Below, one piece after another: positions 36,130 through 56,430 of a DNA stretch of 56,485 bases. Every line of letters begins with the position of its first letter. The stretch's first letter is position 1. Origin of the DNA: a virus; the IMG/VR virus record IMGVR_UViG_3300028025_001707, positions 1-56,485 of that record. One strand, given 5' to 3'. The notes beneath the pieces were generated by a model. The model did no database searches. It saw only the letters and a program-made list of their open reading frames with translations, and had not been told where the DNA came from. Position numbers and translations under genes: made by a program.

Positions 36130-38565
36130 TTATCTAGGTTCAAACGACTCCATATCAAAGTCACCAAGTGAGTCTTCCGTACTCTCAAACTTAACTGGAG
36201 GAAGGTTGTTCTTACGCTGATTAATAAGTTCTGACTGACGTTCTGCCTGTAGATCCACACGCTTGTCCTTAGCCTTTTCTTTCTCCTTCTCACGCTTCAT
36301 TAATCCATCAGTCTCAATGCCTTTAAGCTGCATGTTATACTCGAACTCAAGAGCCATAAGCTCTTTCTTCTTGTCAACCTCAAACTGCATTCTTTGCATA
36401 TCGAGCTGCGCTTCGTTCTGCTTAATAGCAATCTTAGACTGAGCCTCAATCTGAGCAGTCTGCTGTTTCTGAGCTGCGGCTGCTTCTTGTGACTGCATGT
36501 TGATCTGCATCTGCATCTGCTGCTGCATATCTTCACGCTCCTGCTGTTTCTGAACCTTACGTCTACGCTTAACCTTAAGCATCTCGTTAGCAAGCTTCAA
36601 GTTCTTAATCATTCGGATATCTATAGCGTCCTCAAGATCAATCTGATCTCTACCTAATGACACCTGGATGTTTGCCTCAAGCTGTTGTTTTTCTTCAGCA
36701 TCAGGTGCGACATCTATAAATATTCCAAAAGAGTGAAGGTATAGGTTCTTAATATCATCTAGAATAGCAAGGTTATACTTACCAATCTGCATCGCGAACT
36801 CATCCTTAAAGTCAGCGTACTGTAAAATATCTCCAATACGAAGTGACAAACACTCAGCAAGTCGTTTAGTAATCATTAACCCTCCTTGAAGGATATGACG
36901 TGTAGCTACGTTACTGTTAAGAGCAGCTAACTTCTGAACACCTAACAATGCGTTAGGATCAGGAGAAGATCCATCACGAGCCTCATTAAGACCTGTGACA
37001 TCACGTATCATATTAAGGTTGTAATTGTAGTTATTTATAAGAGCAGCCATCTTACTCTGACCGCTGTTACTGTTAAGTTCTTGGATAGGAACTCGTGCGT
37101 TGTTAAACTCACCGTCACCAGTGTAGCTTCTACCAATAACGGATCCAGTCTGGAAGTATAGCTTAAGCGCATCCTCTGGGTTGTATGCTGCACCAGTACC
37201 AAGATCTACCTCAGCGATACCATCTGCATCAATAAATACCCCATCAGGAACTACTCGTGCCATTACCTGCTGTAGCTTCAAGTGTGTAAGCTGAATCTGA
37301 TCAGCAAAAGGAATCATTCGCTTAACTAACGACTGAATCTGTCCCTTGTACATACTCGGTGCAAACATTACATAGTTAGGCAATGCCTTCTCTGTAGCTG
37401 CATCAGGACGAACCATGTTCTCAAGCATGTTCCACTTGATGACAGTGTTAGTACCTAACACAAGTACTCCCTCGTACCAAACTTCCTTAGTAACGTCAAG
37501 TCGTTCGAACATCTCGCTCTCTGACTCTGGGTTAAACGTCTCATCTCTACGTATTACTCGTTCACCACCATTTTCAAGGTACTTCTTCTTATATACGAAT
37601 CGTTTCTCTGTCTTGTAGTTAAAGTACAACAACGTAACTACTTCATCGTCAAAAACATCATCTTGGAAAGTTCTAATGATTGGGTAGTAGTTGTACCACG
37701 CAGATCCAGAACTCTTAATATCCTTAAGTTCTTCATCTGTAATCGATGGGTTAATCTTACGAAGCTCAGTGTAGTGAACTTGCTTAACCTCACCAACATA
37801 ATATATATCTGAGAAGTCAGGCTTCTCTGTGTAACTGTAAATAAGTGAAGCAGGATCAACATACTCAACTGCGACTCCAGATCCAACATTAAACGAGTGC
37901 TTAACAGATCCTATACCTATCTCAGTAAGATCTCTATCTACTTGTGGCTTAACTACGTCACCGTAGTCATTCATCTCTAACAAAGTATTGATCGCAACCT
38001 CTTCAGCTATCTCAATAGCTGGCTTATACTTAAGCTGCATGTATAAAGAAAGCTCCTCATCATTCTCAGGAAGCTCGTCCTCTGGTACGTTAAACGCATC
38101 AATACCGAACTGATCCTTAGTCTGCTTCAAGAAGTCCTTAGCCAACATATCAGCCTCAACCATCTCTTGGAACAAGTTCTTCTTCTCTGCTGACGAAATA
38201 TCTTGTGACTCTACCTTTAAGGCATACTCACGGTCAGCCATACCATTTACAACAATGTCAACAAACTTAGGTATAATTGGAACTGGCTTCCAATCTAAGT
38301 TCATATAAGAAAGGTCACCATCAACAGCAAGCAAGTCCTTGTACATCTGTGTTGGCTGCATACCACGAGAGTATAGTCTCAGTTTATGAAACTCTAAGTA
38401 CTGATCGTAGTATCTACAGCTACCTGCGTTAACTCGCTTAAACCACTCACCCTCAATTGCCTTACCAACTCTAAGACCGTAGTCTTTAGTTTTTTTCTCT
38501 GCATCAGTTGCGTACTGGTTTGGGAATGGAGAGTTACTTATAATTACCGATGGTTTGCTATCCAT
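36130..38565 (-). CDS. Portal protein
   Basis: This 811-aa protein is the probable dodecameric portal through which DNA is packaged. Recognisable segments are LYSRGMQPTQMYKDLL, GDLSYMNLDWKPVPIIPKFV and IVVNGMADREYALKVES, which match crAss-type portals. The C-terminal 150 residues are a Gln/Lys/Glu-rich coiled coil (QQEREDMQQQMQMQINMQSQ). It follows the large terminase with a one-base overlap, the usual order. The length is large but normal for this group. Confidence 0.85.
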   Translation of the reverse strand: MDSKPSVIISNSPFPNQYATDAEKKTKDYGLRVGKAIEGEWFKRVNAGSCRYYDQYLEFHKLRLYSRGMQPTQMYKDLLAVDGDLSYMNLDWKPVPIIPKFVDIVVNGMADREYALKVESQDISSAEKKNLFQEMVEADMLAKDFLKQTKDQFGIDAFNVPEDELPENDEELSLYMQLKYKPAIEIAEEVAINTLLEMNDYGDVVKPQVDRDLTEIGIGSVKHSFNVGSGVAVEYVDPASLIYSYTEKPDFSDIYYVGEVKQVHYTELRKINPSITDEELKDIKSSGSAWYNYYPIIRTFQDDVFDDEVVTLLYFNYKTEKRFVYKKKYLENGGERVIRRDETFNPESESEMFERLDVTKEVWYEGVLVLGTNTVIKWNMLENMVRPDAATEKALPNYVMFAPSMYKGQIQSLVKRMIPFADQIQLTHLKLQQVMARVVPDGVFIDADGIAEVDLGTGAAYNPEDALKLYFQTGSVIGRSYTGDGEFNNARVPIQELNSNSGQSKMAALINNYNYNLNMIRDVTGLNEARDGSSPDPNALLGVQKLAALNSNVATRHILQGGLMITKRLAECLSLRIGDILQYADFKDEFAMQIGKYNLAILDDIKNLYLHSFGIFIDVAPDAEEKQQLEANIQVSLGRDQIDLEDAIDIRMIKNLKLANEMLKVKRRRKVQKQQEREDMQQQMQMQINMQSQEAAAAQKQQTAQIEAQSKIAIKQNEAQLDMQRMQFEVDKKKELMALEFEYNMQLKGIETDGLMKREKEKEKAKDKRVDLQAERQSELINQRKNNLPPVKFESTEDSLGDFDMESFEPR

Positions 38566-41500
38566 TATTTTCTTAATTGACTAATGTTGCCACTGTTGTT
38601 GTATCTGACAAAATTAATATTTATTTTTGACTTTTCCTCTTTGACTTGAAACATGTTCTTTCTAGTAGCCATAATAGCAAGTCCTGAACTAATCGAGGCA
38701 TCGTGTTTGGTTCGATTATTTATGTCAAACCTTGCCCAATCTTCTAAAGTCTTGGTAAAGTACATGTTACCCATCTCGTCTGGTTCACGGTAAGTTCCCT
38801 CCTGATCAAAGCCTACGTACTGTTCAATATACGTGCCTATAGATGATGCGTGAGCTTGTTTAACATCCTCAGACGAGTTAGGTATGCCACCAAGCTCTAA
38901 CTCTGTCTTAGAGAGCTTAGAAATGTGTTTGTCTGGTCTGTTCAGTGAGTAGCCCCTGTACCCTCTATCCTTAATGTGGTACAGTAGTCTAGTCTTATTG
39001 TTCTCAATAAGTATTGGCATACCGTAGAATATAATGGCCATAAGTACGTCTTCAAAGAATATCTCCGCTGTCTGTGTACGTGTAACGTACTCTAATACAA
39101 ACTGATTCGTTGGAGCATTAGGCTCCATATGAAATCCAGTAAGTCCGTGAAGAGCACCGTTTGATCCACCACCACCTACAGTTCCTGATATATCGTAAGG
39201 GTCACATCCAAATGCACCTAAGTGCTCGTTTGCAGGACGCTTCTTCCCATGTCTATCTGTTATTACTTTATTTCTTAACTCAGGTGGTGGTAACCACGAT
39301 ACTGTAAACTTACCTCCTGGATCTGGAGTCCATACTACCTCAGAGTCTAGCACCCCATCCTTCCAATGGAAGTTGCCCTTAGTTAGTACACGCTCCTTAA
39401 TAAGTGAGTCATTGTAGTCTATCTGTTGGTATATCTTAGATAAGTTGTACAGTGATTGCTTAGACTCATCCCTAAACGCATGCGACTCAGTACGTGGGTA
39501 CTGTCTATAATATTCATTAAGTGCGTCAGAGTCGTTCTTAAGTGCTGCAACCTCATTATTCCAGTAAGTGATAACACCATTGTCTATCATCTCACCATCT
39601 ATACCTAACACAGGAGTCTTAGGATCTTCGAACACTGGGAATCCATACTTATCTATGTAGCCCTCAAAGTTCCACTCCATAGGTATGAATAGGCTATAAA
39701 GCCCTGACTTAGTCTGTCCGTTGGCTGATCTAATCTTAGGATTAGAATCTGCGTACAACTTTTTAAAGTTGTTACCACCCTTCTCTAGTGCGTTTGATGT
39801 AGAACCCATCATACACTTACCAATAACCTTAGATCCTAGTCGAAGACATGTCTTTGTTACACGCCAGTTGTTCAATATGTTATCAGGCTTGAGCCATTTT
39901 CCACTGTTTAAACTAATAGTGAAATCAGATAATATAAGCTTTCTTTCATTATCATTTTCACCATCAACAGTTATACCAACATAATCTCCTATACCAATAT
40001 ATTCTACATCTACACCACATCTTCTATTTGTATAAGAATTTGTGTAATTATCAAATCTTTTTCTTGATACAATGGTTGGTATTATAGACAAGTCACCAGA
40101 TATACCTATATTATATGATTTAGTTCCATAATTAGTATTTTTTTCTTTCACTGAAGAACAAGACAAACCACATGATAATGCTATAAATCTTATATCATTA
40201 ATGATTTTTTCATCTTTCATTCCAAATGAAATAATTTTTTTCTTTTTATCTGCATATCCATCTGAATCAATTAACCCAGCTAATAACTGAAGCCTAGACT
40301 CAATAGATGATTTTTTATAGAAATCTGGTATATGTTTATTATTCTTTACTCCTATTTTTGAAAGTTCAGAATTTATTTTTTTAAATCTAAAATATACAGC
40401 GCTATCACTAGATGATTTAATAATATCAAATTCAATATTAAAAATCTGTGCTATCTTACCTAAATATTCAATTATCTCAGGATCTTTATCCTTATTTACT
40501 ATTATTGAAAAACTTTCTTTACGACCATCACCTAACCATAAACCTAAAAGATAAGGATGTATTGTCATACGACTATCATCTTCAGATTCTATAGGCTTAG
40601 ATTTTACTCCAAAAGTATGTTGCTTCTTATATTTAGACATTGATATGTATTCATCTGGAGTCATTATTACTTCTTTCCTTTTCGAAGTCTTAGACCTTCC
40701 ATTATACATATATTGATCAAAAACCAATCTATGGTTTTTACTAACGATATAATCTTCTCCCCACTTCTGTTTAACTCTGTACATATCTGTGGATCCAGAA
40801 GTTTTCTTAACAACTTTTTTAATTACACCCCCGTCAATAATAATTTCATCACCTATATTAATATCTTTTATTTTTTTAAAAGTCCAATCAGAAGTGAGAA
40901 TAAGAGTATTTGGATCATAGCACTCATCATGTACCAATAGTAAAAGCTTTTCACCATCGTATGAGTTATCTGCTGTATTCTTCCAGTCAATAGTTGTGTC
41001 AAGACCTTCAATATCGTCAGTCTTCTCCTCGTTCATACTCTTCTTAGTAATCTTTGAGGCTGGAACCCTAAACGAAAGTTCTGTCTTTGGATTATCCATA
41101 CCATCCTGAACAGGCTTAAAGAAGAATGGGTAGTTCCTAACTATTGGAACAACCTTATCTGTAAACATCTTCTTGGCATCAGGACCAGTCTTAGAAAGTA
41201 TACCAAGCCTAGAGTCCTTAGATATTGTACCTAAGTTTGACACCTCACCTGAACTCATGAACGAGAAACCACTACGACGGTTCTTAAGGTAACACATACC
41301 AAACGAACGTTCGTCAGCCTTGCATGCCTCCCAATAGATGTAGAATATTCTGTTTGATTCACGGAAGTCAGGAAGACCAATATCTATCTTAGACCACTGA
41401 AGATACATGTAGTGAGTACCAGTCATGTAAGTTGGCTCACCATCGTTCATGAACCAGTGGCCATACTCACGCCTATCAAACTCTCCTTCTATATATTCAA

Positions 41501-41819
41501 CCCACTGTGATTTAAATACGTTGTCACGTCTCGACCACTCGAACGAAGACTTTATCTTCTGAAGCTCTTTTGGATACTCATGTGGCATCCATCTATTTTC
41601 TCCAATCTCCAAGTCTTTCGGCGTCCTAGGAAGTGCGATATTGAGACCATTAATGTAATATATGTCGCCAATAGTACCATCTTTCGAAATAATAATTAAG
41701 TCATAGTCACGATCATATCCGTACTGCCAAGCCTTGCTAGCATTCCTAGTCGAACGAGCAGTCTTGTTTACATGATCGTTGTTTAGTTTATAAAGGTCAT
41801 ATTTACTATTTCTTCGCAT
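38565..41819 (-). CDS. terL: Terminase large subunit, interrupted by an intein
   Basis: The precursor is 1084 aa from the ATG at 41819. A further upstream ATG would deepen the overlap with the previous gene. The extein has an ATPase half with a Walker A-like NRRSGFSFMSS (about 180-190) and Walker B LLLLVHDE (about 292-299). The nuclease half has acidic segment GCDPYDISG and a C-terminal KHDASISSGLAIMA. A 339-aa intein lies right after the Walker B Glu. After splicing the extein would be about 745 aa, a normal length, reading HDE-SGKWLKPDNI. The enzyme cuts and pumps DNA into the head. Without splicing, the ATPase should be inactive. Confidence 0.9.
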   Translation of the reverse strand: MRRNSKYDLYKLNNDHVNKTARSTRNASKAWQYGYDRDYDLIIISKDGTIGDIYYINGLNIALPRTPKDLEIGENRWMPHEYPKELQKIKSSFEWSRRDNVFKSQWVEYIEGEFDRREYGHWFMNDGEPTYMTGTHYMYLQWSKIDIGLPDFRESNRIFYIYWEACKADERSFGMCYLKNRRSGFSFMSSGEVSNLGTISKDSRLGILSKTGPDAKKMFTDKVVPIVRNYPFFFKPVQDGMDNPKTELSFRVPASKITKKSMNEEKTDDIEGLDTTIDWKNTADNSYDGEKLLLLVHDECYDPNTLILTSDWTFKKIKDINIGDEIIIDGGVIKKVVKKTSGSTDMYRVKQKWGEDYIVSKNHRLVFDQYMYNGRSKTSKRKEVIMTPDEYISMSKYKKQHTFGVKSKPIESEDDSRMTIHPYLLGLWLGDGRKESFSIIVNKDKDPEIIEYLGKIAQIFNIEFDIIKSSSDSAVYFRFKKINSELSKIGVKNNKHIPDFYKKSSIESRLQLLAGLIDSDGYADKKKKIISFGMKDEKIINDIRFIALSCGLSCSSVKEKNTNYGTKSYNIGISGDLSIIPTIVSRKRFDNYTNSYTNRRCGVDVEYIGIGDYVGITVDGENDNERKLILSDFTISLNSGKWLKPDNILNNWRVTKTCLRLGSKVIGKCMMGSTSNALEKGGNNFKKLYADSNPKIRSANGQTKSGLYSLFIPMEWNFEGYIDKYGFPVFEDPKTPVLGIDGEMIDNGVITYWNNEVAALKNDSDALNEYYRQYPRTESHAFRDESKQSLYNLSKIYQQIDYNDSLIKERVLTKGNFHWKDGVLDSEVVWTPDPGGKFTVSWLPPPELRNKVITDRHGKKRPANEHLGAFGCDPYDISGTVGGGGSNGALHGLTGFHMEPNAPTNQFVLEYVTRTQTAEIFFEDVLMAIIFYGMPILIENNKTRLLYHIKDRGYRGYSLNRPDKHISKLSKTELELGGIPNSSEDVKQAHASSIGTYIEQYVGFDQEGTYREPDEMGNMYFTKTLEDWARFDINNRTKHDASISSGLAIMATRKNMFQVKEEKSKININFVRYNNSGNISQLRK
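39906..40922 (-). mobile_element. LAGLIDADG intein in terL
   Basis: This 339-aa in-frame insert starts at Cys (CYDPNTLILTSDWTFKKIKD, block A) and contains a block B-like DYIVSKNHRLVF. It has two LAGLIDADG-type motifs, YLLGLWLGDG and LLAGLIDSDG. It ends with block F/G GDYVGITVDGENDN and FTISLN, followed by Ser as first C-extein residue. The penultimate residue is Leu instead of the usual His. The DNA is more AT-rich than the flanking terL: the 60-base line at 40381 has 12 G/C, against 23 in the line at 39241. The homing endonuclease looks intact, so the element may still be mobile. Confidence 0.92.
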
Positions 41820-42105
41820 TGCTTCTTGCCCTTCCCTCTGCAAATCCTCCACTACCAGATAACACAACTGGCATAGAACCAACAGTCTCTTTTGCACGCT
41901 CTGAATCTATACGCTCAAGTATAGATAGCGCATCCTCAAACGCAAGTCGCTTTGCAGCTGCTGCGTTCTTCATCTTATCAACTGACAAGTCATCGTCAAT
42001 AGAGTAATTTACAATTTGCTGTTCGAGTACCTTAATAAGTTCGTCAACAGACTTCTCTGCTGCACGTAGCACTCTGTCTTTTTTATCTCTTAGATTTTCA
42101 AGCAT
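41806..42105 (-). CDS. Candidate small terminase subunit
   Basis: This 99-aa helical protein starts MLENLRDKKDRVLRAAEKSV, has a long coiled-coil-like middle, and ends in a flexible Gly/Ser/basic tail. It lies immediately upstream of terL, overlapping it by 14 bases, the usual place for the DNA-recognition subunit. No clear helix-turn-helix is visible, so the assignment rests on position and size. Confidence 0.5.
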   Translation of the reverse strand: MLENLRDKKDRVLRAAEKSVDELIKVLEQQIVNYSIDDDLSVDKMKNAAAAKRLAFEDALSILERIDSERAKETVGSMPVVLSGSGGFAEGRARSNAKK

Positions 42106-49635: not shown

Positions 49636-49864
49636 TCCTGTACGACTCTTCACCATTTCGGTAGTCGTGACCTTGGACAGCATCGTAGGCAACAACGTCA
49701 CCCTTATGTATATGCTCAGCAACTAAGTCGCTGACCTCTATAACCTCTGCCTCCTGGTATCGCTGCTTTACAATCTCAGCTCCAGTGAGTAACAACCCAC
49801 TCGCACTCTTCTGCTGCTCTACAACTAGAGGCTTAACTACAATAAAACTATTTAACGCTTTCAT
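49601..49864 (-). CDS. groES: GroES co-chaperonin
   Basis: This 87-aa protein has the GroES barrel: FIVVKPLVVEQQKSASGLLL with the mobile loop and its Leu-Leu-Leu tip (the bacterial Ile-Val-Leu position), then KQRYQEAEVIEVSD, HKGDVVAYDAVQGHDYRNGE and a final YRDVALIL. It should cap the GroEL ring encoded just upstream. It overlaps groEL by 17 bases. The order groEL then groES is the reverse of the usual bacterial groESL operon. Confidence 0.9.
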   Translation of the reverse strand: MKALNSFIVVKPLVVEQQKSASGLLLTGAEIVKQRYQEAEVIEVSDLVAEHIHKGDVVAYDAVQGHDYRNGEESYRIIQYRDVALIL

Positions 49865-51446
49865 TCTCTCTTACATTTGTGATTATCGCATTCGTACTAA
49901 GGATCGTAGTGGCTACAGACACAGCGTTCTTAAGTGCGTTCTTAGTTACCTTCGCTGGATCAATAATGCCCATCTTCATCATATCACCTGTCTTCTTATC
50001 CTTTACGTTGTAACCCCTTCCTACACTACCATCGTCAAAGAACTTCTCGTAGTCCAACACCTCGTTTCCATCAACACCAGCGTTCTCACAGATCTTATGG
50101 AATGGAGCCTCGCACGCCTGAGACATAATGTCAAGCGCAACAGATGGGTTACCGTTAACCATAGCCTTAGACGCTGTAAACGCCATTGCGTTCACAAGTC
50201 CTACACCACCACCAGGCAATACACCATCCTCAATCGCAGCCTTAACAGCCAGTACCGCATCGTCAACACGATCCCTCAATTCCTTCTGCTCGATGTCTGA
50301 ACTAGCACCAACGTAGATCATACCTACGCCTCCTGAGATAGAGGCAATGCGCTCGTCCATGAACTTAAGGTTCTCCTCCAACGTCTCCTCCCACTTGCTC
50401 ATCTTAAGCTCCTTAACGTATGCATCAAGGTCCTCATCAGTACCCTCGTTACGCACAATAATCGTACTGTCCTGACTAACGATAATCTTCTTCGCCCTAC
50501 CAAGCCCTGACACTGTACACAACGCTAGGTTGTCACCAGTAGACTCTGAGTAGTAGTGAGCACCCAATGCCTTAGAGATATCTGTCATCATCTCGTCCTT
50601 ACGGTAACCGAAATTAGGTGGGATAATGTTACACACCTTGATCTTGCCCTGCACAACGTTCATGTTAAGTGTAGCTGATACCTGTGGTGACAGCTGACCT
50701 ACAATAAGCAAAGGCTTACCTTCCTTTAACACATGCGCCAGTACGTTCTCTATGTTAGAGAGATTATTAATCTCATGATCCGTAAGTAACACATACGCAT
50801 CCTCCATCACGCACTCCATCTTCTTGTGATCCGTAACGTAGTACTTAGATGTCCATCCTCTTGCCACACGGATACCTTTAATAACCTCAGAGTATGTCTT
50901 CGTGGTCTTAGAGTTCTCTACAATAACATGGCTAACCTGCGAGTACACATCAGCAATCAACTTACCTACAACGGGATCGTTGTTCGCAGAGATCGTCGCT
51001 ACATCAAGCAGCCTCTTACCACTGACCTTCTTAGACATACGTCCAAGCTCCTTCACTACATCGTCTGCAATTGATTGGATCTGTCTTAGTACCTCAGTCT
51101 TGCTGTGCTTGTCTACATCAAAGTAGTCCTCGAACGCATCGATAATAGCCTTGGTAAGCACAATACTAGTCGTAGTGCCATCACCTGCCGACGAAGCTGT
51201 CTTCGATGCTGCCTCCCGTACTAACTGGACCGCTAAGTTTTCTACTGGATCGTACAAGTTGATTGATCGTGCGACAGTCACACCATCCTTTGTAACAGTC
51301 ACGCCACCTATGTGGTGTTCTGACTCTATTAATACCGTCTGACCTGATGGCCCTAACGTAGATGAAACTGCTGCTGATATCTTGTCGATGCCATTTTTCA
51401 GTTTCTTACGTCCACTTTCATCTAAAAATATCTGTTTTACTACCAT
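49848..51446 (-). CDS. groEL: GroEL chaperonin
   Basis: This 532-aa protein covers the whole Cpn60 family. It has the ATP loop AGDGTTTSIVL, an N-terminal SSTLGPSGQTVLI, apical-domain segments (VARGWTSKYYVTDH), VDDAVLAVKAAIEDGVLPGG with the catalytic Asp, and a C-terminal equatorial part. It lacks the Gly-Gly-Met tail of bacterial GroEL. The likely role is folding of the phage's large capsid or fibre proteins. It has a textbook promoter with a 19-base leader and is followed by groES. Identity to the host gene looks moderate, so long residence in phages is likely. Confidence 0.95.
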   Translation of the reverse strand: MVVKQIFLDESGRKKLKNGIDKISAAVSSTLGPSGQTVLIESEHHIGGVTVTKDGVTVARSINLYDPVENLAVQLVREAASKTASSAGDGTTTSIVLTKAIIDAFEDYFDVDKHSKTEVLRQIQSIADDVVKELGRMSKKVSGKRLLDVATISANNDPVVGKLIADVYSQVSHVIVENSKTTKTYSEVIKGIRVARGWTSKYYVTDHKKMECVMEDAYVLLTDHEINNLSNIENVLAHVLKEGKPLLIVGQLSPQVSATLNMNVVQGKIKVCNIIPPNFGYRKDEMMTDISKALGAHYYSESTGDNLALCTVSGLGRAKKIIVSQDSTIIVRNEGTDEDLDAYVKELKMSKWEETLEENLKFMDERIASISGGVGMIYVGASSDIEQKELRDRVDDAVLAVKAAIEDGVLPGGGVGLVNAMAFTASKAMVNGNPSVALDIMSQACEAPFHKICENAGVDGNEVLDYEKFFDDGSVGRGYNVKDKKTGDMMKMGIIDPAKVTKNALKNAVSVATTILSTNAIITNVRENESVK

Positions 51447-51715: not shown

Positions 51716-51954
51716 ACGTTTAAAGGTGAATTTAATGTTACCTCAAAAGTTTCAGCTGTTCCTAAAACCACTTGCAAACTTTCATCATAAATAATATACC
51801 AAAACACTGGATTGTCTAAACTTGCTGTTTTATAATCTACCCAATTTTGGGTTACATCTTCAGGTGATACGGGTATTCCATAGTAATTATCACAAGCCTC
51901 TCTTGCGTTAATTGCATCCTGTTCACTCAAGTATTTATATCCTATTACTTCCAT
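51712..51954 (-). CDS. 80-aa hypothetical protein
   Basis: This product starts MEVIGYKYLSEQDAINAREA and contains NYYGIPVSPEDVTQNWVDY, with NPVFWYIIYDESLQVVLG. A mixed alpha/beta small domain of unknown role. It starts at the last base of the 519-aa fibre gene, so it is probably a partner of that protein. Confidence 0.65.
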   Translation of the reverse strand: MEVIGYKYLSEQDAINAREACDNYYGIPVSPEDVTQNWVDYKTASLDNPVFWYIIYDESLQVVLGTAETFEVTLNSPLNV

Positions 51955-53513
51955 TAGTATATTGAATAATAAGAGTTAATATTTGAAAATATTCCATTTC
52001 TACTTGCTGACATATCAGAAACATAATAAATAAATTCTTGTAAATCACCAGCAAAAGCATATCCAGTATAATTACCAAAATTATAAGTTTGCATTGATGT
52101 ACCGTTTTGATGTAAAATAGATTTATATCCGTTCAATATATTATAAACTTGGTTTCTTGTTGTTCCTGTAAATAATGAATTATTCACATATAATGATGGA
52201 GTGCCATAAGCATTATATATATTAGTTGAATTATCACCACTATTTGCAACAAATCCGTAAGCTGTTCCAGAATGATTTGGATATAAATAAGTAGTATCAC
52301 TTGTTTGAGCCACATAATATTGGTCTGTTCTTGCAAATCCGCTTAATAATGTGCTTGTAATTTCATCATTTATACCATCAAATCTCATACAAGGTTTAGT
52401 ACCTCTTGTTAATACTACACCATTATTTACTATTTGTGGCTGATTAGCAGCGGTTGATTGAACAATATCTCTTGCATTACCTGATTGGTCGTACCATTTT
52501 GTAACAAACCCATTACCAGCACCAACAAAAGCAAGTAAGGCAGTTTCATTTAAATTACCATTTGAATCATAACTTATATCTTGTTCTGTATTATCTGAAC
52601 TTCTACGAACACGAATTAAAGCGCTTGTATATGTTGAACTTAATCTTCTAACTGAATAAGCTGCCCCAGCTCCTGAATAATTATCAAGTAATCTATTACC
52701 TATTTCACGGCCGAGGGTTGTTTGGAATGTTTGTACGGCTGTGTATAAGTTTGCTGATTCGGTGTCTGTAAGTCCATCGCCAATTGAGGCGAATGCGTAT
52801 TGACGATTTGAAAAAAAAGCCGAACCAGTTCCAAAATGATAAGCACCAATATAAATTTCAGTATCTAATCTGTTACCATTTGTGCCAGTGTATGTACTAC
52901 CTAATTGAATATTATTTTTAAATAATTTTAAACTTGTACTTGAATTTCTGTTTATTACATAATATCCTTGAGAGTTTGTATTTGCAGTTATTACTCCATT
53001 TAAATGCACTCTTGCGTATATATTTCCATCTGTGACTCTTAACGATAAATCAGTTCTTGCTGAGCCATTTAATCCGCCCATATCAACACTATCAAGTATA
53101 GTATTTGTTCTGGAATAAATTGACAAATGCGCAGAATTATTTGTACTATAAGCTGTGCTTGGTGTTAAAAACGTGTTGGCAAATCCATTTGTGCCGTTTG
53201 GCAATGCTCCATTTGCTGAATGAGTCCACCCACCGTTAAACACCAACCTAAACGCAGCATCCGTATCAAGTGGATTCTTCAAGTTGAACTTGTGAGTACT
53301 TGCCGTTCCTCCAACAAATGGATAGATAGCTTTCATCTTGCTCCAAACACCGTAGCCTTTCAAGTCAACAACCAACTGATTTACCGCACTCTGCTGTGTA
53401 GGGTCTGTTATAGCTGCTGCTGTGATGAATGCCTGAGCGTCTGGGTCGACAGGTGTGCCTCCAGACTGACCGAACAAAAGTATACTTGAACTAAATGGCG
53501 ATATACCGATCAT
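51954..53513 (-). CDS. Fibre/structural protein with arabinofuranosidase-B-like segment
   Basis: From the ATG at 53513 (MIGISPFSSSILLFG) the product is 519 aa. An upstream ATG would start inside the promoter and terminator region. Residues about 270-370 (AAYSVRRLSSTYTSALIRVR, then VTKWYDQSGNARDIVQS) match the repeated AbfB-type segment that Bacteroidota phages and prophages carry in tail proteins. The N-terminal part looks like a LamG-type sheet. It could bind or cut surface arabinan-type glycans, but the catalytic residues of the enzyme family are not clear here. A TATCTTTG box lies 13 bases before the ATG. Confidence 0.7.
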   Translation of the reverse strand: MIGISPFSSSILLFGQSGGTPVDPDAQAFITAAAITDPTQQSAVNQLVVDLKGYGVWSKMKAIYPFVGGTASTHKFNLKNPLDTDAAFRLVFNGGWTHSANGALPNGTNGFANTFLTPSTAYSTNNSAHLSIYSRTNTILDSVDMGGLNGSARTDLSLRVTDGNIYARVHLNGVITANTNSQGYYVINRNSSTSLKLFKNNIQLGSTYTGTNGNRLDTEIYIGAYHFGTGSAFFSNRQYAFASIGDGLTDTESANLYTAVQTFQTTLGREIGNRLLDNYSGAGAAYSVRRLSSTYTSALIRVRRSSDNTEQDISYDSNGNLNETALLAFVGAGNGFVTKWYDQSGNARDIVQSTAANQPQIVNNGVVLTRGTKPCMRFDGINDEITSTLLSGFARTDQYYVAQTSDTTYLYPNHSGTAYGFVANSGDNSTNIYNAYGTPSLYVNNSLFTGTTRNQVYNILNGYKSILHQNGTSMQTYNFGNYTGYAFAGDLQEFIYYVSDMSASRNGIFSNINSYYSIY

Positions 53514-53526
53514 TCTTTTTTTTTGA

Positions 53527-53534
53527 CAAAGATA
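53527..53534 (-). promoter_or_regulatory. TATCTTTG box before the 519-aa gene
   Basis: TATCTTTG on the minus strand, with a 13-base leader made mostly of A before the ATG. It follows the terminator of the 118-aa gene at once. Confidence 0.5.
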
Positions 53535-53536
53535 AA

Positions 53537-53566
53537 CAAAAAAAACGCACACCGTTAAGTGTGCGT
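53537..53566 (-). terminator. Terminator after the 118-aa secreted protein gene
   Basis: Minus-strand ACGCACAC/GTGTGCGT 8-bp stem with a 6-base loop and a T-run of about eight. It lies 25 bases after the stop. Confidence 0.92.
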
Positions 53567-53590
53567 CTTAGTTATGTAGAGTGGTGGTTG

Positions 53591-53947
53591 TTAAATTTTC
53601 CCGACTATTAATGTCTTTCCATAATCATCATGGTAGAGCGCGATCTTCAAGAATCCTCCGTACTCGTTCTCTACAAACCATACATGTGCAAAGAATTTAC
53701 GGTCTTTCTCTATCTTGTGTGGCTTGCTAATGTCGATCTGGTACTCTGCGAACCATTCTGCTGACATACTATCCATGAACTTGTCGTCTCCGTAGATCAT
53801 TACAGCAGCTGTGTCCTGATCTGTCATGAACCACTCGTAAGGATTTGAGTCCTTAACTTTCTTGTAGTAATTTGGTTCGTCAAACGTTTGTGCTGTGGCG
53901 ATGATACTAACCGATACCATAACTGCCGCTAAAATTGCTTTCTTCAT
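53591..53947 (-). CDS. Small secreted protein (paralogue 1)
   Basis: This 118-aa protein has a clear signal peptide, MKKAILAAVMVSVSIIATAQ, probably cut after Ala-Gln-type residues. No lipobox and no later membrane segment. The mature part of about 100 residues has YYKKVKDSNPYEWFMTD and WFAEYQIDISKPHKI. A 116-aa paralogue lies at 55136-55486. The gene has a promoter and terminator of its own, like moron genes that act in infected cells. Periplasmic action, such as superinfection exclusion, is a guess. No family is recognised. Confidence 0.75.
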   Translation of the reverse strand: MKKAILAAVMVSVSIIATAQTFDEPNYYKKVKDSNPYEWFMTDQDTAAVMIYGDDKFMDSMSAEWFAEYQIDISKPHKIEKDRKFFAHVWFVENEYGGFLKIALYHDDYGKTLIVGKI

Positions 53948-53976
53948 AGTTGTTTAATTAAATTGAGTTTCTATTT

Positions 53977-54007
53977 CAAATGTAGTCAAAAAAAAATACC
54001 CACCAAA
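53977..54007 (-). promoter_or_regulatory. Promoter of the 118-aa gene inside a terminator hairpin
   Basis: Minus-strand TTTG (54007-54004), 19 bases, TACATTTG (53984-53977), a full consensus match. The -33 TTTG is part of the stem of the terminator of the gene before it. A 29-base leader follows with AACTCAATT in common with the 116-aa gene. Confidence 0.8.
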
Positions 54008-54026
54008 TTTTTTGGCAGGTATTTTT
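53992..54026 (-). terminator. Terminator after the 339-aa gene
   Basis: Outer stem AAAAATACC/GGTATTTTT (53992-54000 and 54018-54026), inner stem CCAAA/TTTGG (54003-54007 and 54011-54015), then a T-run on the minus strand. It is close in sequence to the hairpin at 55528-55562. Confidence 0.85.
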
Positions 54027-54043
54027 CAAAAAAAATATATTTA

Positions 54044-55063
54044 TCAAGAATAACGCATCTTTCCAGCTTGCATTCTGCCTTTCATGCTAGGTTTCTTCTC
54101 AACTGTTTCATTCATTTTAGACTTACTGAAGTACTTAGTCTTTCCAGCTTGCTCTTTCTTCTCAAACTTCTGTGACTTACGAGTATCTTTCAAAGCACCT
54201 TTAAGCTCCTTCTTGTATCCAGCTTTTGCTTCTGGACTAACATTTAGTTTTGAAGCTCCTTTCATTTCAGATTTAATATCACTACGTAAAGATTTGTATC
54301 CAGCCTTTTTCTCTTTAGAAAAAGCGCCAGCTGCAACATTAGCTCCTTTTTTTACATCCTCTGGAGAATTCTGATCAGCATACTTCTTACTACGTGTATA
54401 AGCACCAGCCAATTTCTCCTCTTTTCTGAACTTACGACCTTCTGAACCTCCAGCTAATCCTCCTTGTGACTTAAGTCTACCAGTTACACTGCCCTGCTTT
54501 TTAAAAGATTTGCTTTTCCCTCCAGGAGCCTCAATAGCTTTAGAAACTGTTTCCTTTCTCTTAGGAGATATTTCCAATTTTCTTGAAGGTGTTGAAGCAG
54601 CAAGCTTTCTAGTCTTCATTACTGGAGAACCCTCCTCAGCGTAACGACGTCTAGACTCAGTCTCATATGCAGCCTTCTCAGTAGTTGGGTTATAGTAATC
54701 AACCTGATATCTAGTAGGTAAACCATTTTCCATTGGTTTAGCCTTATCAGTAGGATCAAAACGAACTTCCTTCGCAAGAAGTTTGCCACCCATTCCGCGC
54801 TCTCTTTCACGGAAAGCCTTCAATTGATCATCTTTAAGTTTTTGATGCTTTGTCTTTTTACCATAACCTTGGTAGTACTCATCTCTAGGTGTGCTACCAT
54901 ATTCTTTCCACTGTCCTTCAGCAGTTGTAGCTCCTTCTGTGAACTTACGCTGACCAGTAACAGTTACAGATGGTGTAGTAGTAACCTTCGGTTTTATACC
55001 AGTATTTTTCTTAGGGTCACCTGGACCTGTTGTTGCCTTACGGCTTGTTCTCATTAATGCCAT
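54044..55063 (-). CDS. Large basic, disordered protein
   Basis: This 339-aa protein is rich in Lys, Arg, Gly, Ser and Pro with almost no hydrophobic core. It starts MALMRTSRKATTGPGDPKKN, and the C-terminal part repeats KAGYK-type units and KKE or KSK clusters. Such proteins are likely to bind nucleic acid or be packaged in the head. Its beginning (MRTSRK) is like that of the 110-aa basic protein MRTKTT at 55581-55913. It has its own weak -7 box and terminator. No known domain is recognised. Confidence 0.7.
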   Translation of the reverse strand: MALMRTSRKATTGPGDPKKNTGIKPKVTTTPSVTVTGQRKFTEGATTAEGQWKEYGSTPRDEYYQGYGKKTKHQKLKDDQLKAFRERERGMGGKLLAKEVRFDPTDKAKPMENGLPTRYQVDYYNPTTEKAAYETESRRRYAEEGSPVMKTRKLAASTPSRKLEISPKRKETVSKAIEAPGGKSKSFKKQGSVTGRLKSQGGLAGGSEGRKFRKEEKLAGAYTRSKKYADQNSPEDVKKGANVAAGAFSKEKKAGYKSLRSDIKSEMKGASKLNVSPEAKAGYKKELKGALKDTRKSQKFEKKEQAGKTKYFSKSKMNETVEKKPSMKGRMQAGKMRYS

Positions 55064-55077
55064 GACATATTTTTTTA

Positions 55078-55085
55078 CAAAAATA
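55078..55085 (-). promoter_or_regulatory. TATTTTTG box before the 339-aa gene
   Basis: TATTTTTG on the minus strand fits TAnnTTTG, 14 bases before the ATG. No -33 seen. It directly follows a terminator T-run, as for other boxes in this region. Confidence 0.4.
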
Positions 55086-55087
55086 AC

Positions 55088-55114
55088 AAAAAAAAGCCAT
55101 CTGTTAAGATAGCT
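55088..55114 (-). terminator. Terminator after the 116-aa secreted protein gene
   Basis: Minus-strand AGCTATCT/AGATGGCT stem (one G-T pair) with a 4-base loop and T-run. It lies 22 bases after the stop at 55136. Confidence 0.85.
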
Positions 55115-55135
55115 TTCCTTTGTGTAGTTTAACTG

Positions 55136-55486
55136 TTATTCTAATATCTTGATGTTTACCAAACTTCTTTCTTTATACTTGTAGAACGTGAGTACTGCAT
55201 CCTTATTCTGCTCACTCTTGTAACCCCACTCTTTAATGTCTGCTGAGGTCTTATTGTCGAAGTACTGCTTTGTAGGCTTGCTTACATCAAATCCCTCGTC
55301 CTTCATCCAGCCGTACACTACACTGCTTACTGAATTGTTACCTCCCTTGATGAAGATTGAGCTAGTGTCTCCTGTTACATAGTAGTACTCAAGATCTGGA
55401 GCTTGTTTGTGAGATTTGTAAATCTTCTGTGCTGTGACAATGGAGCTAATAGCCACCATTAATGTCATTAAAATTACCTTCTTCAT
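55136..55486 (-). CDS. Small secreted protein (paralogue 2)
   Basis: This 116-aa protein has a signal peptide MKKVILMTLMVAISSIVTAQ that is close in pattern to paralogue 1. The mature part has YYYVTGDTSSIFIKGG and YGWMKDEGFDVSKPTKQYFD, matching paralogue 1 in the order of an aromatic segment, a TA or TS-VMI or IFI strand, and DISKP or DVSKP. It lies between a promoter and a terminator that resemble those of paralogue 1, so the whole unit was probably duplicated. Function unknown. Confidence 0.75.
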   Translation of the reverse strand: MKKVILMTLMVAISSIVTAQKIYKSHKQAPDLEYYYVTGDTSSIFIKGGNNSVSSVVYGWMKDEGFDVSKPTKQYFDNKTSADIKEWGYKSEQNKDAVLTFYKYKERSLVNIKILE

Positions 55487-55512
55487 AGTTGTTGTTTAAT
55501 TGAGTTTCTAGA

Positions 55513-55543
55513 ACGAATATAAACAAAAAAAAATACTCACCAA
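55513..55543 (-). promoter_or_regulatory. Promoter of the 116-aa gene inside a terminator hairpin
   Basis: Minus-strand TTTG (55543-55540), 19 bases, TATATTCG (55520-55513), one mismatch in the -7 box (C for T). The -33 lies inside the terminator hairpin, as for paralogue 1. Confidence 0.7.
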
Positions 55544-55562
55544 AATTTTTAGCGAGTATTTT
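55528..55562 (-). terminator. Terminator after the 110-aa gene
   Basis: Stem AAAAATACTC/GAGTATTTTT (55528-55537 and 55553-55562) followed by a T-run on the minus strand. The loop region holds the -33 element of the next gene. Confidence 0.85.
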
Positions 55563-55580
55563 TAAAAAAATGTAAAAAAA

Positions 55581-55913
55581 TTACTTTTTACCCTTATTCA
55601 TACCGAATTTAGAAGGAGGAGTAACTTTAACGTTAGCGCTTTTCAACTTCTGAGGAGTAACACCACCCTTGTAGTTTACAACTCGACCATCAGACAACAC
55701 AAGCTGTCCTTTAGCGTTAGTCTTGTAGCTTCCAGCTTTAGCAATCTTTCTAGCTTCAGTTCTTGCAGTTGCTTCAGATTGTGCTTTAGCAACTCCAGCA
55801 GCCATAGATTTCTCTGTAGCCTTCTTTGCAGTGTAACGTCCCATCGCCTCAGATTGCGCTTGAGCAGCAGTCTTCTTTACAGGCTTATCAGGATTTGTTG
55901 TTTTTGTTCTCAT
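55581..55913 (-). CDS. Basic alanine/lysine-rich protein
   Basis: This 110-aa protein starts MRTKTTNPDKPVKKTAAQAQ with internal AAQAQSEA and AKAQSEATARTEAR. It has the Ala/Lys helix composition of histone H1-like tails, then GRVVNYKGGVTPQKLKSANV. It is followed by its own terminator. The start-region likeness to the 339-aa protein makes it the first member of the first cassette. A DNA-binding or virion-packaged role is inference. Confidence 0.7.
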   Translation of the reverse strand: MRTKTTNPDKPVKKTAAQAQSEAMGRYTAKKATEKSMAAGVAKAQSEATARTEARKIAKAGSYKTNAKGQLVLSDGRVVNYKGGVTPQKLKSANVKVTPPSKFGMNKGKK

Positions 55914-55934: not shown

Positions 55935-56231
55935 TTACTCGACAAAGTTAGTAAATTCAAATGAATTACAAACAGAGTTCTCGCACGCAGTTATTTCTAC
56001 AAACCTATTCATGCGAAACGCTGGCTCCTGATACCTACCAAGAAGCTGCTGATATATCTCCTCGTTACGAACCTCCTCCAATAAAACACCAGTGACAATC
56101 CCATCGTTCTCCAATACCTGCCGAACAGTATACTCCTCACCCTTCTTCACCCACTGCGGATACACCATGCACACGAACTCTATCTGGTCCGCCTTGATGG
56201 AATCATCTATGCACAGAAGCCTACTCCTCAT
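55935..56231 (-). CDS. 98-aa hypothetical protein
   Basis: This product starts MRSRLLCIDDSIKADQIEFV and has VCMVYPQWVKKGEEYTVRQV and VTGVLLEEVRNEEIYQQLLG, then PAFRMNRFVEI. It is a mixed alpha/beta small protein with several cysteines. Phage proteins of this kind with the segment VKKGEEYTVRQVL are widespread but unnamed. It overlaps the 62-aa gene by 11 bases. Function unknown. Confidence 0.7.
   Translation of the reverse strand: MRSRLLCIDDSIKADQIEFVCMVYPQWVKKGEEYTVRQVLENDGIVTGVLLEEVRNEEIYQQLLGRYQEPAFRMNRFVEITACENSVCNSFEFTNFVE
55943..55950 (-). promoter_or_regulatory. TAACTTTG box before the 110-aa gene
   Basis: TAACTTTG on the minus strand fits TAnnTTTG and lies 29 bases before the ATG at 55913, inside the last codons of the 98-aa gene. 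Confidence 0.4.
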
Positions 56232-56409
56232 TGTTCATCATTATATACCTCTTACCATCCGTAAGCCAACGCATCACATAGTTCGTCTGACGCCTCTTAG
56301 ACCTCTGAATGTACGTAAATGTTGACTTGTGTCGAGAAATGTCGGTCCAGTGTCGAGAAAATGTCGACTCAAAAACACGTAAGTTGTTGATCCTGTGCAT
56401 GTTATCCAT
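56221..56409 (-). CDS. 62-aa protein encoded across TGTCGA repeats
   Basis: The product starts MDNMHRINNLRVFESTFSRH, then WTDISRHKSTFTYIQRSKRR, and ends YVMRWLTDGKRYIMMNNEE. The two SRH/STF units are translations of the TGTCGA-based repeats, so the first third may be secondary to a DNA signal. The C-terminal half looks like a normal basic small protein, and the 11-base overlap with the next gene supports translation. A shorter start further in is possible. Function unknown. Confidence 0.55.
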   Translation of the reverse strand: MDNMHRINNLRVFESTFSRHWTDISRHKSTFTYIQRSKRRQTNYVMRWLTDGKRYIMMNNEE

Positions 56410-56430
56410 TTTTAGTGTCGAGATGTCGAC
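56319..56430. repeat. TGTCGA-based direct repeats (iteron- or operator-like)
   Basis: GTGTCGAGAAATGTCG (56329-56344), GTGTCGAGAAAATGTCGAC (56350-56368) and GTGTCGAGATGTCGAC (56415-56430), with a diverged ATGTTGAC at 56319-56326. The copies share GTGTCGAGA-(A)TGTCG. Two are inside the 62-aa gene and one is just upstream of it. Candidate initiator or repressor binding sites. Confidence 0.7.

What the first reader, a model, noticed from the sequence alone, without database searches (positions are those of the whole stretch)
53567..55913. Tandem duplicated cassette: basic protein plus small secreted protein
Reading the minus strand, the order is basic protein (110 aa), hairpin/promoter, secreted protein (116 aa), terminator, basic protein (339 aa), hairpin/promoter, secreted protein (118 aa), terminator. 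The secreted proteins share signal peptide and a D(I/V)SKP region, the leaders share a common string, and the hairpins are alike. Two independent units with own signals look like a moron array that arose by duplication and diverged.
Basis: partly seen in the sequence, partly recalled or inferred. Interest (0 to 1): 0.7.

Follow-up and report, generated by a model that had tools for sequence, protein, structure and literature searches.

The report
Phage gene array with swappable joints
In this virus of flavobacteria-like hosts, a string of small genes, two of them for related proteins that the infected cell would export, is joined by nearly unchanging DNA linkers that end one gene's transcript and start the next, and comparison with sister viruses shows that the linkers stay while the genes between them are gained, lost and swapped.

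Summary
The two exported proteins are homologous (34%, E=2e-12) and share 158 bp of leader, promoter and hairpin DNA (76%, E=4e-28). The two basic proteins are not demonstrably related. The hairpins are terminators of the upstream gene, and each sits directly on a Bacteroidota-type promoter (TTTG-N19-TAnnTTYG).

"Tandem duplication that diverged" is only partly right. Sister phages usually carry one basic-secreted pair. Their terminator-promoter linker is 96-100% identical to that of window unit 2, although the mature secreted proteins behind it are only 61-67% identical in DNA between the two types. Unit 1 is the outlier. sec116 groups with the secreted proteins of L010/L014 (type B), sec118 with that of L004 (type A). 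L004 carries type A plus a 19-codon scar of type B. The basic 339-aa protein is itself a mosaic.

Best reading: a cassette array of single-gene transcription units shuffled by recombination at conserved terminator-promoter linkers. It works like the PeSLs of T4-type phages, here with Bacteroidota promoters in a podovirus-like phage. The secreted proteins probably act in the host periplasm, perhaps in superinfection exclusion (inference only). Some basic proteins carry a TonB-box-like motif, the most novel lead.

The parts
55935..56231 (-). p98: conserved small protein (CIDDSIK motif) that opens the leftward gene array; homologues in 27 viral loci
   Evidence: 97% identical in L004; the search for related loci
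55943..55972 (-). promoter TTTG-N18-TAACTTTG in the 3' end of p98, reading bas110; in L004, L010 and L025 the same promoter reads the single large basic gene
55581..55913 (-). bas110: 110-aa Lys-rich protein; not demonstrably related to bas339
55487..55580 (-). linker X' (unit 1): intrinsic terminator 55563-55529 of bas110, promoter TTTG-N19-TATATTCG 55544-55514 overlapping its 3' arm, leader of sec116
55136..55486 (-). sec116: type B secreted protein, signal peptide residues 1-20 (cleavage near VTA/QK)
55064..55135 (-). linker Z: terminator GCTATCTTAACAGATGGC-T8 of sec116 followed by TATTTTTG (55085-55078) promoter of bas339; same element precedes the basic gene of L014
54044..55063 (-). bas339: large basic protein; mosaic (residues 1-150 L004-like, 151-270 L010-like)
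54944..54973 (-). TonB-box-like motif PSVTVTGQRK (residues 31-40 of bas339)
53948..54043 (-). linker X (unit 2): terminator 54026-53992 of bas339, promoter TTTG-N19-TACATTTG 54007-53977, leader of sec118; 96-100% identical in L004, L010, L014, L025
53591..53947 (-). sec118: type A secreted protein, signal peptide residues 1-20 (cleavage near ATA/QT), mature alpha/beta domain (beta2-alpha-beta4)
53514..53590 (-). linker Y: terminator 53569-53542 of sec118 plus TATCTTTG (53534-53527) promoter of the fibre gene; single or double copies in sister phages
51954..53513 (-). fibre/adhesin-like structural protein; first ~15 residues (MIGISPF..SSILLFG) conserved in L003/L010, the rest swapped
   Evidence: PHROG 10356 E=1.8e-19
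49848..51446 (-). phage GroEL with its own TTTG-N19-TATATTTG promoter (51496); right border of the array

Best explanation
The region p98-groEL is an array of single-gene transcription units joined by composite linkers: an intrinsic terminator for the upstream gene fused to a Bacteroidota sigma-ABfr-type promoter for the downstream gene (shown by sequence; activity inferred). The linkers, not the genes, are the conserved part. They serve as homology for recombination between co-infecting relatives, so genes between them are added, lost and replaced without disturbing neighbours' expression (strongly inferred from mosaics and scars). The window holds two basic-secreted pairs because it combines a type B and a type A secreted-protein unit that sister phages carry singly. 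Each secreted protein has an N-terminal Sec signal peptide without a lipobox and a mature domain of about 95 residues, so it should reach the periplasm of the infected host, transcribed by the unmodified host polymerase (inferred). Most likely role: envelope modification, such as superinfection exclusion or lysis control (about 0.35, inference only). The large basic protein is probably a virion-associated, mostly disordered protein (about 0.4, inference).
For: Composite linkers: 6 on the window minus strand, 0 on the plus strand, 0.0 in shuffles; TTTG-N18-21-TAnnTTYG 5 on the minus strand against 0.54 expected, 4 of them in this region. Linker X is 95.7-100% identical among window unit 2, L004, L010, L014 and L025, while mature secreted DNA is 61-67% between types. 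Secreted tree: sec118+L004 supported 100/100 (93/100 on mature parts), sec116 with L010/L014. Scar: L004 8158-8290 is 97% identical over 133 nt to the 3' end of type B sec plus linker Y of L010/L025, although L004's intact sec is type A; L025 has an intact type B sec plus the same scar behind an inserted 236-aa gene. bas339 mosaic: residues 1-150 match L004 87/150 against L010 45/147; residues 151-270 match L010 80/112 against L004 44/113. Fibre module also swapped between 95-98% identical linkers. The basic-terminator-promoter-secreted pair also occurs in the more distant L032/L033.
Against: Only about six distinct related arrays are known, all metagenomic contigs. Conservation of the linkers could reflect selection on regulation alone, with crossovers elsewhere (the bas339 crossover lies inside the gene). 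Composite linkers also occur in the structural module (31274, 30896, and in the same module of MW202828 and elemoF), where shuffling was not tested. No function is shown for any of the four proteins; Pfam, PHROGs, PADLOC, NCBIfam and PDB gave no significant match.
Confidence: 0.75

Rival explanations
1. Local tandem duplication of a basic-secreted cassette in the window lineage, followed by divergence.
For: Adjacent head-to-tail arrangement; secreted proteins and linkers homologous; both units begin with an AAAAAA(C/T)ATGTCATG start context.
Against: Unit 2's linker is 98-99% identical to L004/L010 but 78% identical to unit 1, so unit 1 is older or foreign. sec116 is nearer to L010/L014 than to sec118. 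Basic proteins not demonstrably homologous.
Confidence: 0.15
2. Ancestral two-unit array (types A and B side by side) with differential loss in sister phages and no transfer between phages.
For: L004 has type A plus a type B scar; L014 has linker Z upstream of its basic gene, so another unit once stood there or still does.
Against: Order differs (B-A in window, A-B scar in L004). Types A and B sit behind the near-identical linker X at the same locus in different phages. bas339 and the fibre are mosaic.
Confidence: 0.15
3. Linkers are conserved purely as strong regulatory elements for abundant transcripts; recombination at them is incidental.
For: Composite linkers also stand before structural genes in the window, MW202828 and elemoF; promoter boxes match the published consensus (PMC6847099).
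Against: Near-identity extends through loop, spacer and leader bases that regulation would not obviously fix, and scars end in linkers.
Confidence: 0.3
4. The secreted proteins are receptor-specific superinfection-exclusion factors matched to the neighbouring fibre, like T5 Llp.
For: Signal peptide, next to the fibre gene, host-type promoter. Llp is a small periplasmic T5 protein encoded next to the receptor-binding protein that jams FhuA (PMC9586334).
Against: Secreted and fibre alleles are not linked: L004 and L025 share the 236-aa and fibre genes but not the secreted type; window and L003 share the secreted protein but not the fibre. No lipobox cysteine.
Confidence: 0.2

Closest known systems
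PeSLs (promoter early stem-loop elements) of T4-type phages (Arbiol 2010; Comeau 2014; described through PMC4503421)
   Same: Composite terminator stem-loop plus promoter in intergenic joints, conserved between phages, bordering variable genes, proposed to mediate modular shuffling by recombination.
   Different: Bacteroidota sigma-ABfr promoter (TTTG/TAHHTTTG) instead of the T4 early sigma-70 promoter; podovirus-like phage; few copies; the -33 box lies inside the 3' arm of the hairpin; no sequence relation tested.
Morons of lambdoid phages
   Same: Extra genes with own promoter and terminator placed between conserved genes; variable presence.
   Different: No integrase or repressor-type lysogeny genes seen among the genes examined; units form an array and swap at shared linkers.
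T5 Llp / Cor small exclusion proteins
   Same: Small exported phage proteins next to receptor-binding genes, expected in the periplasm.
   Different: No lipobox, no match in the family searches, larger mature domain, no linkage with the fibre type.
Mog1/PsbP/DcrB/BamC-like fold
   Same: Weak structural matches of the model to PsbP, DcrB, BamC, Flpp3 and EagT6.
   Different: No match below E=0.001, TM below 0.5; a hint only.
Elemovirus / Cellulophaga podoviruses and MW202828
   Same: Portal 46-57% identical, phage GroEL/GroES, composite linkers in the structural module.
   Different: No homologue of the secreted proteins in the phage collection.

Membership tests
PeSL (T4-type) | Stem-loop terminator directly joined to a promoter in an intergenic region | tested here: met
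   6 composites against 0.0 in shuffles; folds
PeSL (T4-type) | Promoter of the T4 early (sigma-70) type in a T4-like myovirus | tested here: not met
   sigma-70-type hits at background level (17 against 18.2); promoters are Bacteroidota type; podovirus-like portal
PeSL (T4-type) | Linker conserved while flanking genes vary, with signs of recombination | tested here: met
Moron | Own promoter and terminator | tested here: met
   (sequence only, activity not measured)
Moron | Absent from close relatives at the same place | tested here: met
   unit 1 absent in L004, L010, L025
Moron | Expressed from an integrated prophage | not testable with these tools
   no integrase seen among about 28 window proteins scanned; window is a fragment
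Llp/Cor exclusion lipoprotein | Lipobox cysteine | tested here: not met
   signal peptides end ATA/QT and VTA/QK, no Cys
Llp/Cor exclusion lipoprotein | Blocks secondary infection | not testable with these tools
   needs plating assays
TonB-dependent / TonB-box protein | TonB-box-like stretch near the N-terminus | tested here: inconclusive
   motif in 7 unique ORFs against 0.35 expected, all basic proteins of this locus, but chosen after the fact and missing in L014-L019 and L023

The most novel reading that the evidence does not exclude
The basic proteins are virion cargo that crosses or reaches the periplasm on infection and engages the host TonB machinery through a TonB-box-like motif ((L)PEVTVT(A/G)(K/Q)(R/K)), a mimicry shared with basic proteins of other Bacteroidota-type phages; the co-encoded exported protein is its periplasmic partner or regulates it. 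The pair basic-terminator-promoter-secreted is kept in two phage genera.
Probability: 0.1. Interest if true: 0.85.

Novelty: new variant of a known kind. Interest (0 to 1): 0.5.

Why it matters
Composite terminator-promoter linkers that mediate gene shuffling have been described for T4-type phages. Finding the same logic, built from different promoter parts, in an unrelated podovirus-like phage of Bacteroidota suggests that it evolved more than once and may be a general way for phages to keep an accessory-gene slot open. The scar in L004/L025 gives a directly readable record of one replacement. The linkers can also be used to find accessory genes in other Bacteroidota phages without homology searches. 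If the TonB-box lead held, it would bear on how phages of Bacteroidota get their DNA and proteins across the envelope.

Tried and rejected
Phage collection by DNA and protein: no homologues of the secreted or small basic proteins. Host genomes: no relative found, though the scan used signal-peptide patterns only, so it is weak. Pfam, PHROGs, PADLOC, NCBIfam, PDB sequences: nothing significant. The spackle-like PHROG 1586 hit (E=0.011) rests mainly on the signal peptide and was not used. Rfam and tRNA scans: none. Fold comparison: only weak PsbP/DcrB/BamC-like matches; best viral match A0A6J5PU00, unnamed, E=4.4e-3, TM 0.54. bas110 as an internally deleted copy of the large basic protein: not supported (full-length p about 0.1 or worse against all seven; N-terminus p 0.02-0.03 against two of seven, uncorrected). 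Secreted-fibre co-inheritance: rejected. The nucleotide identities of bas110 with the long basic genes come from gap-rich global alignments and are not used.

Full report
Setting. The window is a 56,485-base IMG/VR record (virus record). Its portal is 46-57% identical to those of Flavobacterium elemo phages, Maribacter phage Panino and MW202828, and it encodes terminase, structural proteins, amidase, replication genes and GroEL. So it is a podovirus-like phage of a Bacteroidota host. The finding lies at the right end of the window, at the start of the leftward (minus-strand) genes, between p98 and groEL.

What is there. On the minus strand: p98, bas110, sec116, bas339, sec118, fibre, two small genes, groEL. 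The secreted proteins are homologous (34%, E=2e-12). At DNA level the resemblance runs over 158 bp (76%, E=4e-28) that covers hairpin, promoter, leader and signal peptide and stops near the cleavage site. The basic proteins are not demonstrably related (E=0.51; shuffle tests).

The joints. Each hairpin is followed by a T-run and then by a -7 box TAHHTTYG. The published consensus of the Bacteroidota housekeeping sigma factor is TTTG / TANNTTTG, refined to TAHHTTTG (PMC6847099). In both basic-to-secreted joints the TTTG of the -33 box is part of the hairpin's 3' arm, with a spacer of 19. TTTG-N18-21-TAnnTTYG occurs 5 times on the minus strand (0.54 expected), 4 of them before bas110, sec116, sec118 and groEL. 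The composite hairpin-T-run-TAHHTTYG occurs 6 times on the minus strand, never on the plus strand, and 0.0 times in shuffles; 4 of the 6 are the four joints between bas110 and the fibre gene. The two basic-to-secreted hairpins keep all stem pairs with one compensatory and two wobble-compatible changes (read by eye; energies).

Sister arrays. L003 has the same two-unit array (99-100% proteins) but another fibre. L004 has p98-bas363-secA119-236-fibre212-groEL. L010/L011 have p98-bas351-secB115-fibre-groEL. L025 has p98-bas330-secB115-236-fibre. L014 begins with linker Z before bas338-secB115. Phages with 55% identical GroEL (L015-L021, L023) have a large basic gene directly before groEL and no secreted gene. 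The more distant L032/L033 have a small basic gene, a remote homologue of the secreted protein (L032 HMM E=1.2e-4) and, in L032, a composite linker between them, some genes before p98.

Linkers constant, genes variable. Linker X of window unit 2 is 95.7-98.9% identical to that of L004, L010, L014 and L025 (these four 97.8-100% among themselves), yet the mature secreted sequence behind it is 61-67% identical between types, near the background of such gapped alignments. Unit 1 is the outlier with 78-84% in the linker. Linker Y and the groEL leader are likewise 93-98% identical across different fibres in most comparisons. In the protein tree sec118 groups with L004 (100/100; 93/100 on mature parts), and sec116 lies with L010/L014.

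Scars and mosaics. In L004 a 133-nt stretch between the 236-aa gene and the fibre is 97% identical to the last 19 codons of type B sec plus linker Y of L010/L025, while L004's intact secreted gene is type A. L025 has the same inserted 236-aa gene and scar behind an intact type B gene. So the gene was inserted next to a type B gene, duplicating its tail and linker, and the secreted gene was then replaced by type A in L004, or the block was moved into a type A phage. bas339 itself is a mosaic with a switch near residue 150.

How it probably works. Each gene is its own transcription unit for host RNA polymerase, insulated by the terminator in front of it. The linkers give neighbouring genes a shared stretch of homology, so recombination during co-infection can exchange a gene while leaving its expression signals intact. 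Shown: anatomy, conservation contrast, scar, mosaics. Inferred: promoter and terminator activity, crossover at the linkers, periplasmic location. The role of the secreted proteins is not known; I favour an action on the host envelope (superinfection exclusion or lysis control, about 0.35). A simple match to the fibre, as for T5 Llp (PMC9586334), is not supported because secreted and fibre alleles are exchanged independently.

The basic proteins. Rich in Lys/Arg and low in complexity. A motif resembling TonB boxes of outer-membrane receptors (resemblance from general knowledge) is found in bas339 (PSVTVTGQRK), L004, L025, L020 and, twice each, L032/L033. In 2110 unique ORFs of the loci the pattern hits 7, all basic proteins of this locus, against 0.35 expected. 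A scan of viral contigs for PEVTVTAK(R/K) gave 12 contigs, several with basic proteins next to structural or terminase genes of low-GC phages, but two are GC-rich phages with the motif in another kind of protein, and many related basic proteins lack it. It is a lead, chosen after the fact.

Comparison with the known. The arrangement works like the PeSLs of T4-type phages (Arbiol 2010, Comeau 2014, as described in PMC4503421; the 2010 paper is not held). It is not a member, since the promoter type and phage type differ. It meets the anatomical criteria of morons, but no lysogeny genes were seen among the proteins scanned. I therefore rate it a new variant of a known kind.

Limits. Few sister genomes, all metagenomic; assembly errors at repeats cannot be excluded, although L003, from another record, shows the same two-unit array. 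The scan of host genomes was weak. The structure model (pLDDT 76) gave no significant match.

Noticed in passing
window 30896 and 31274 (minus strand): Two more composite terminator-TAHHTTTG linkers flank a small gene (MEKFLSIPV..., about 94 aa) inside the structural module; similar linkers stand in the same module of MW202828 and elemoF.
   Followed up: partly
window 56329-56429: Cluster of TCGACA repeats (for example TCGACATTTTCTCGACA, TCGACATCTCGACA; pairs 2 against 0.00 expected) upstream of p98, at the end of the fragment; L032 has GCGACA repeats in the corresponding place. Possible origin or regulator-binding region.
   Followed up: partly
window 38565-41897: The large terminase subunit (1110 aa) appears to contain an intein with Hint and LAGLIDADG homing endonuclease domains (Pfam Hom_end_hint at 326-395, Hom_end at 523-600).
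   Followed up: partly
window 55935-56231: p98 (CIDDSIK motif) is widespread: 27 viral loci in several gene contexts; function unknown.
   Followed up: no
L052, L055, L056, L057, L061: PEVTVTAK(R/K) motif in basic, glycine-rich or large proteins of other low-GC phages, some next to terminase or structural genes; also in proteins of GC-rich phages L053, L060.
   Followed up: partly
window 51954-53513, L003 2486-2845, L010 9536-9919: Fibre genes share linker Y and a short N-terminal anchor (MIGISPF..SSILLFG) but the window's differs completely afterwards: a second swapping slot in the same array.
   Followed up: partly
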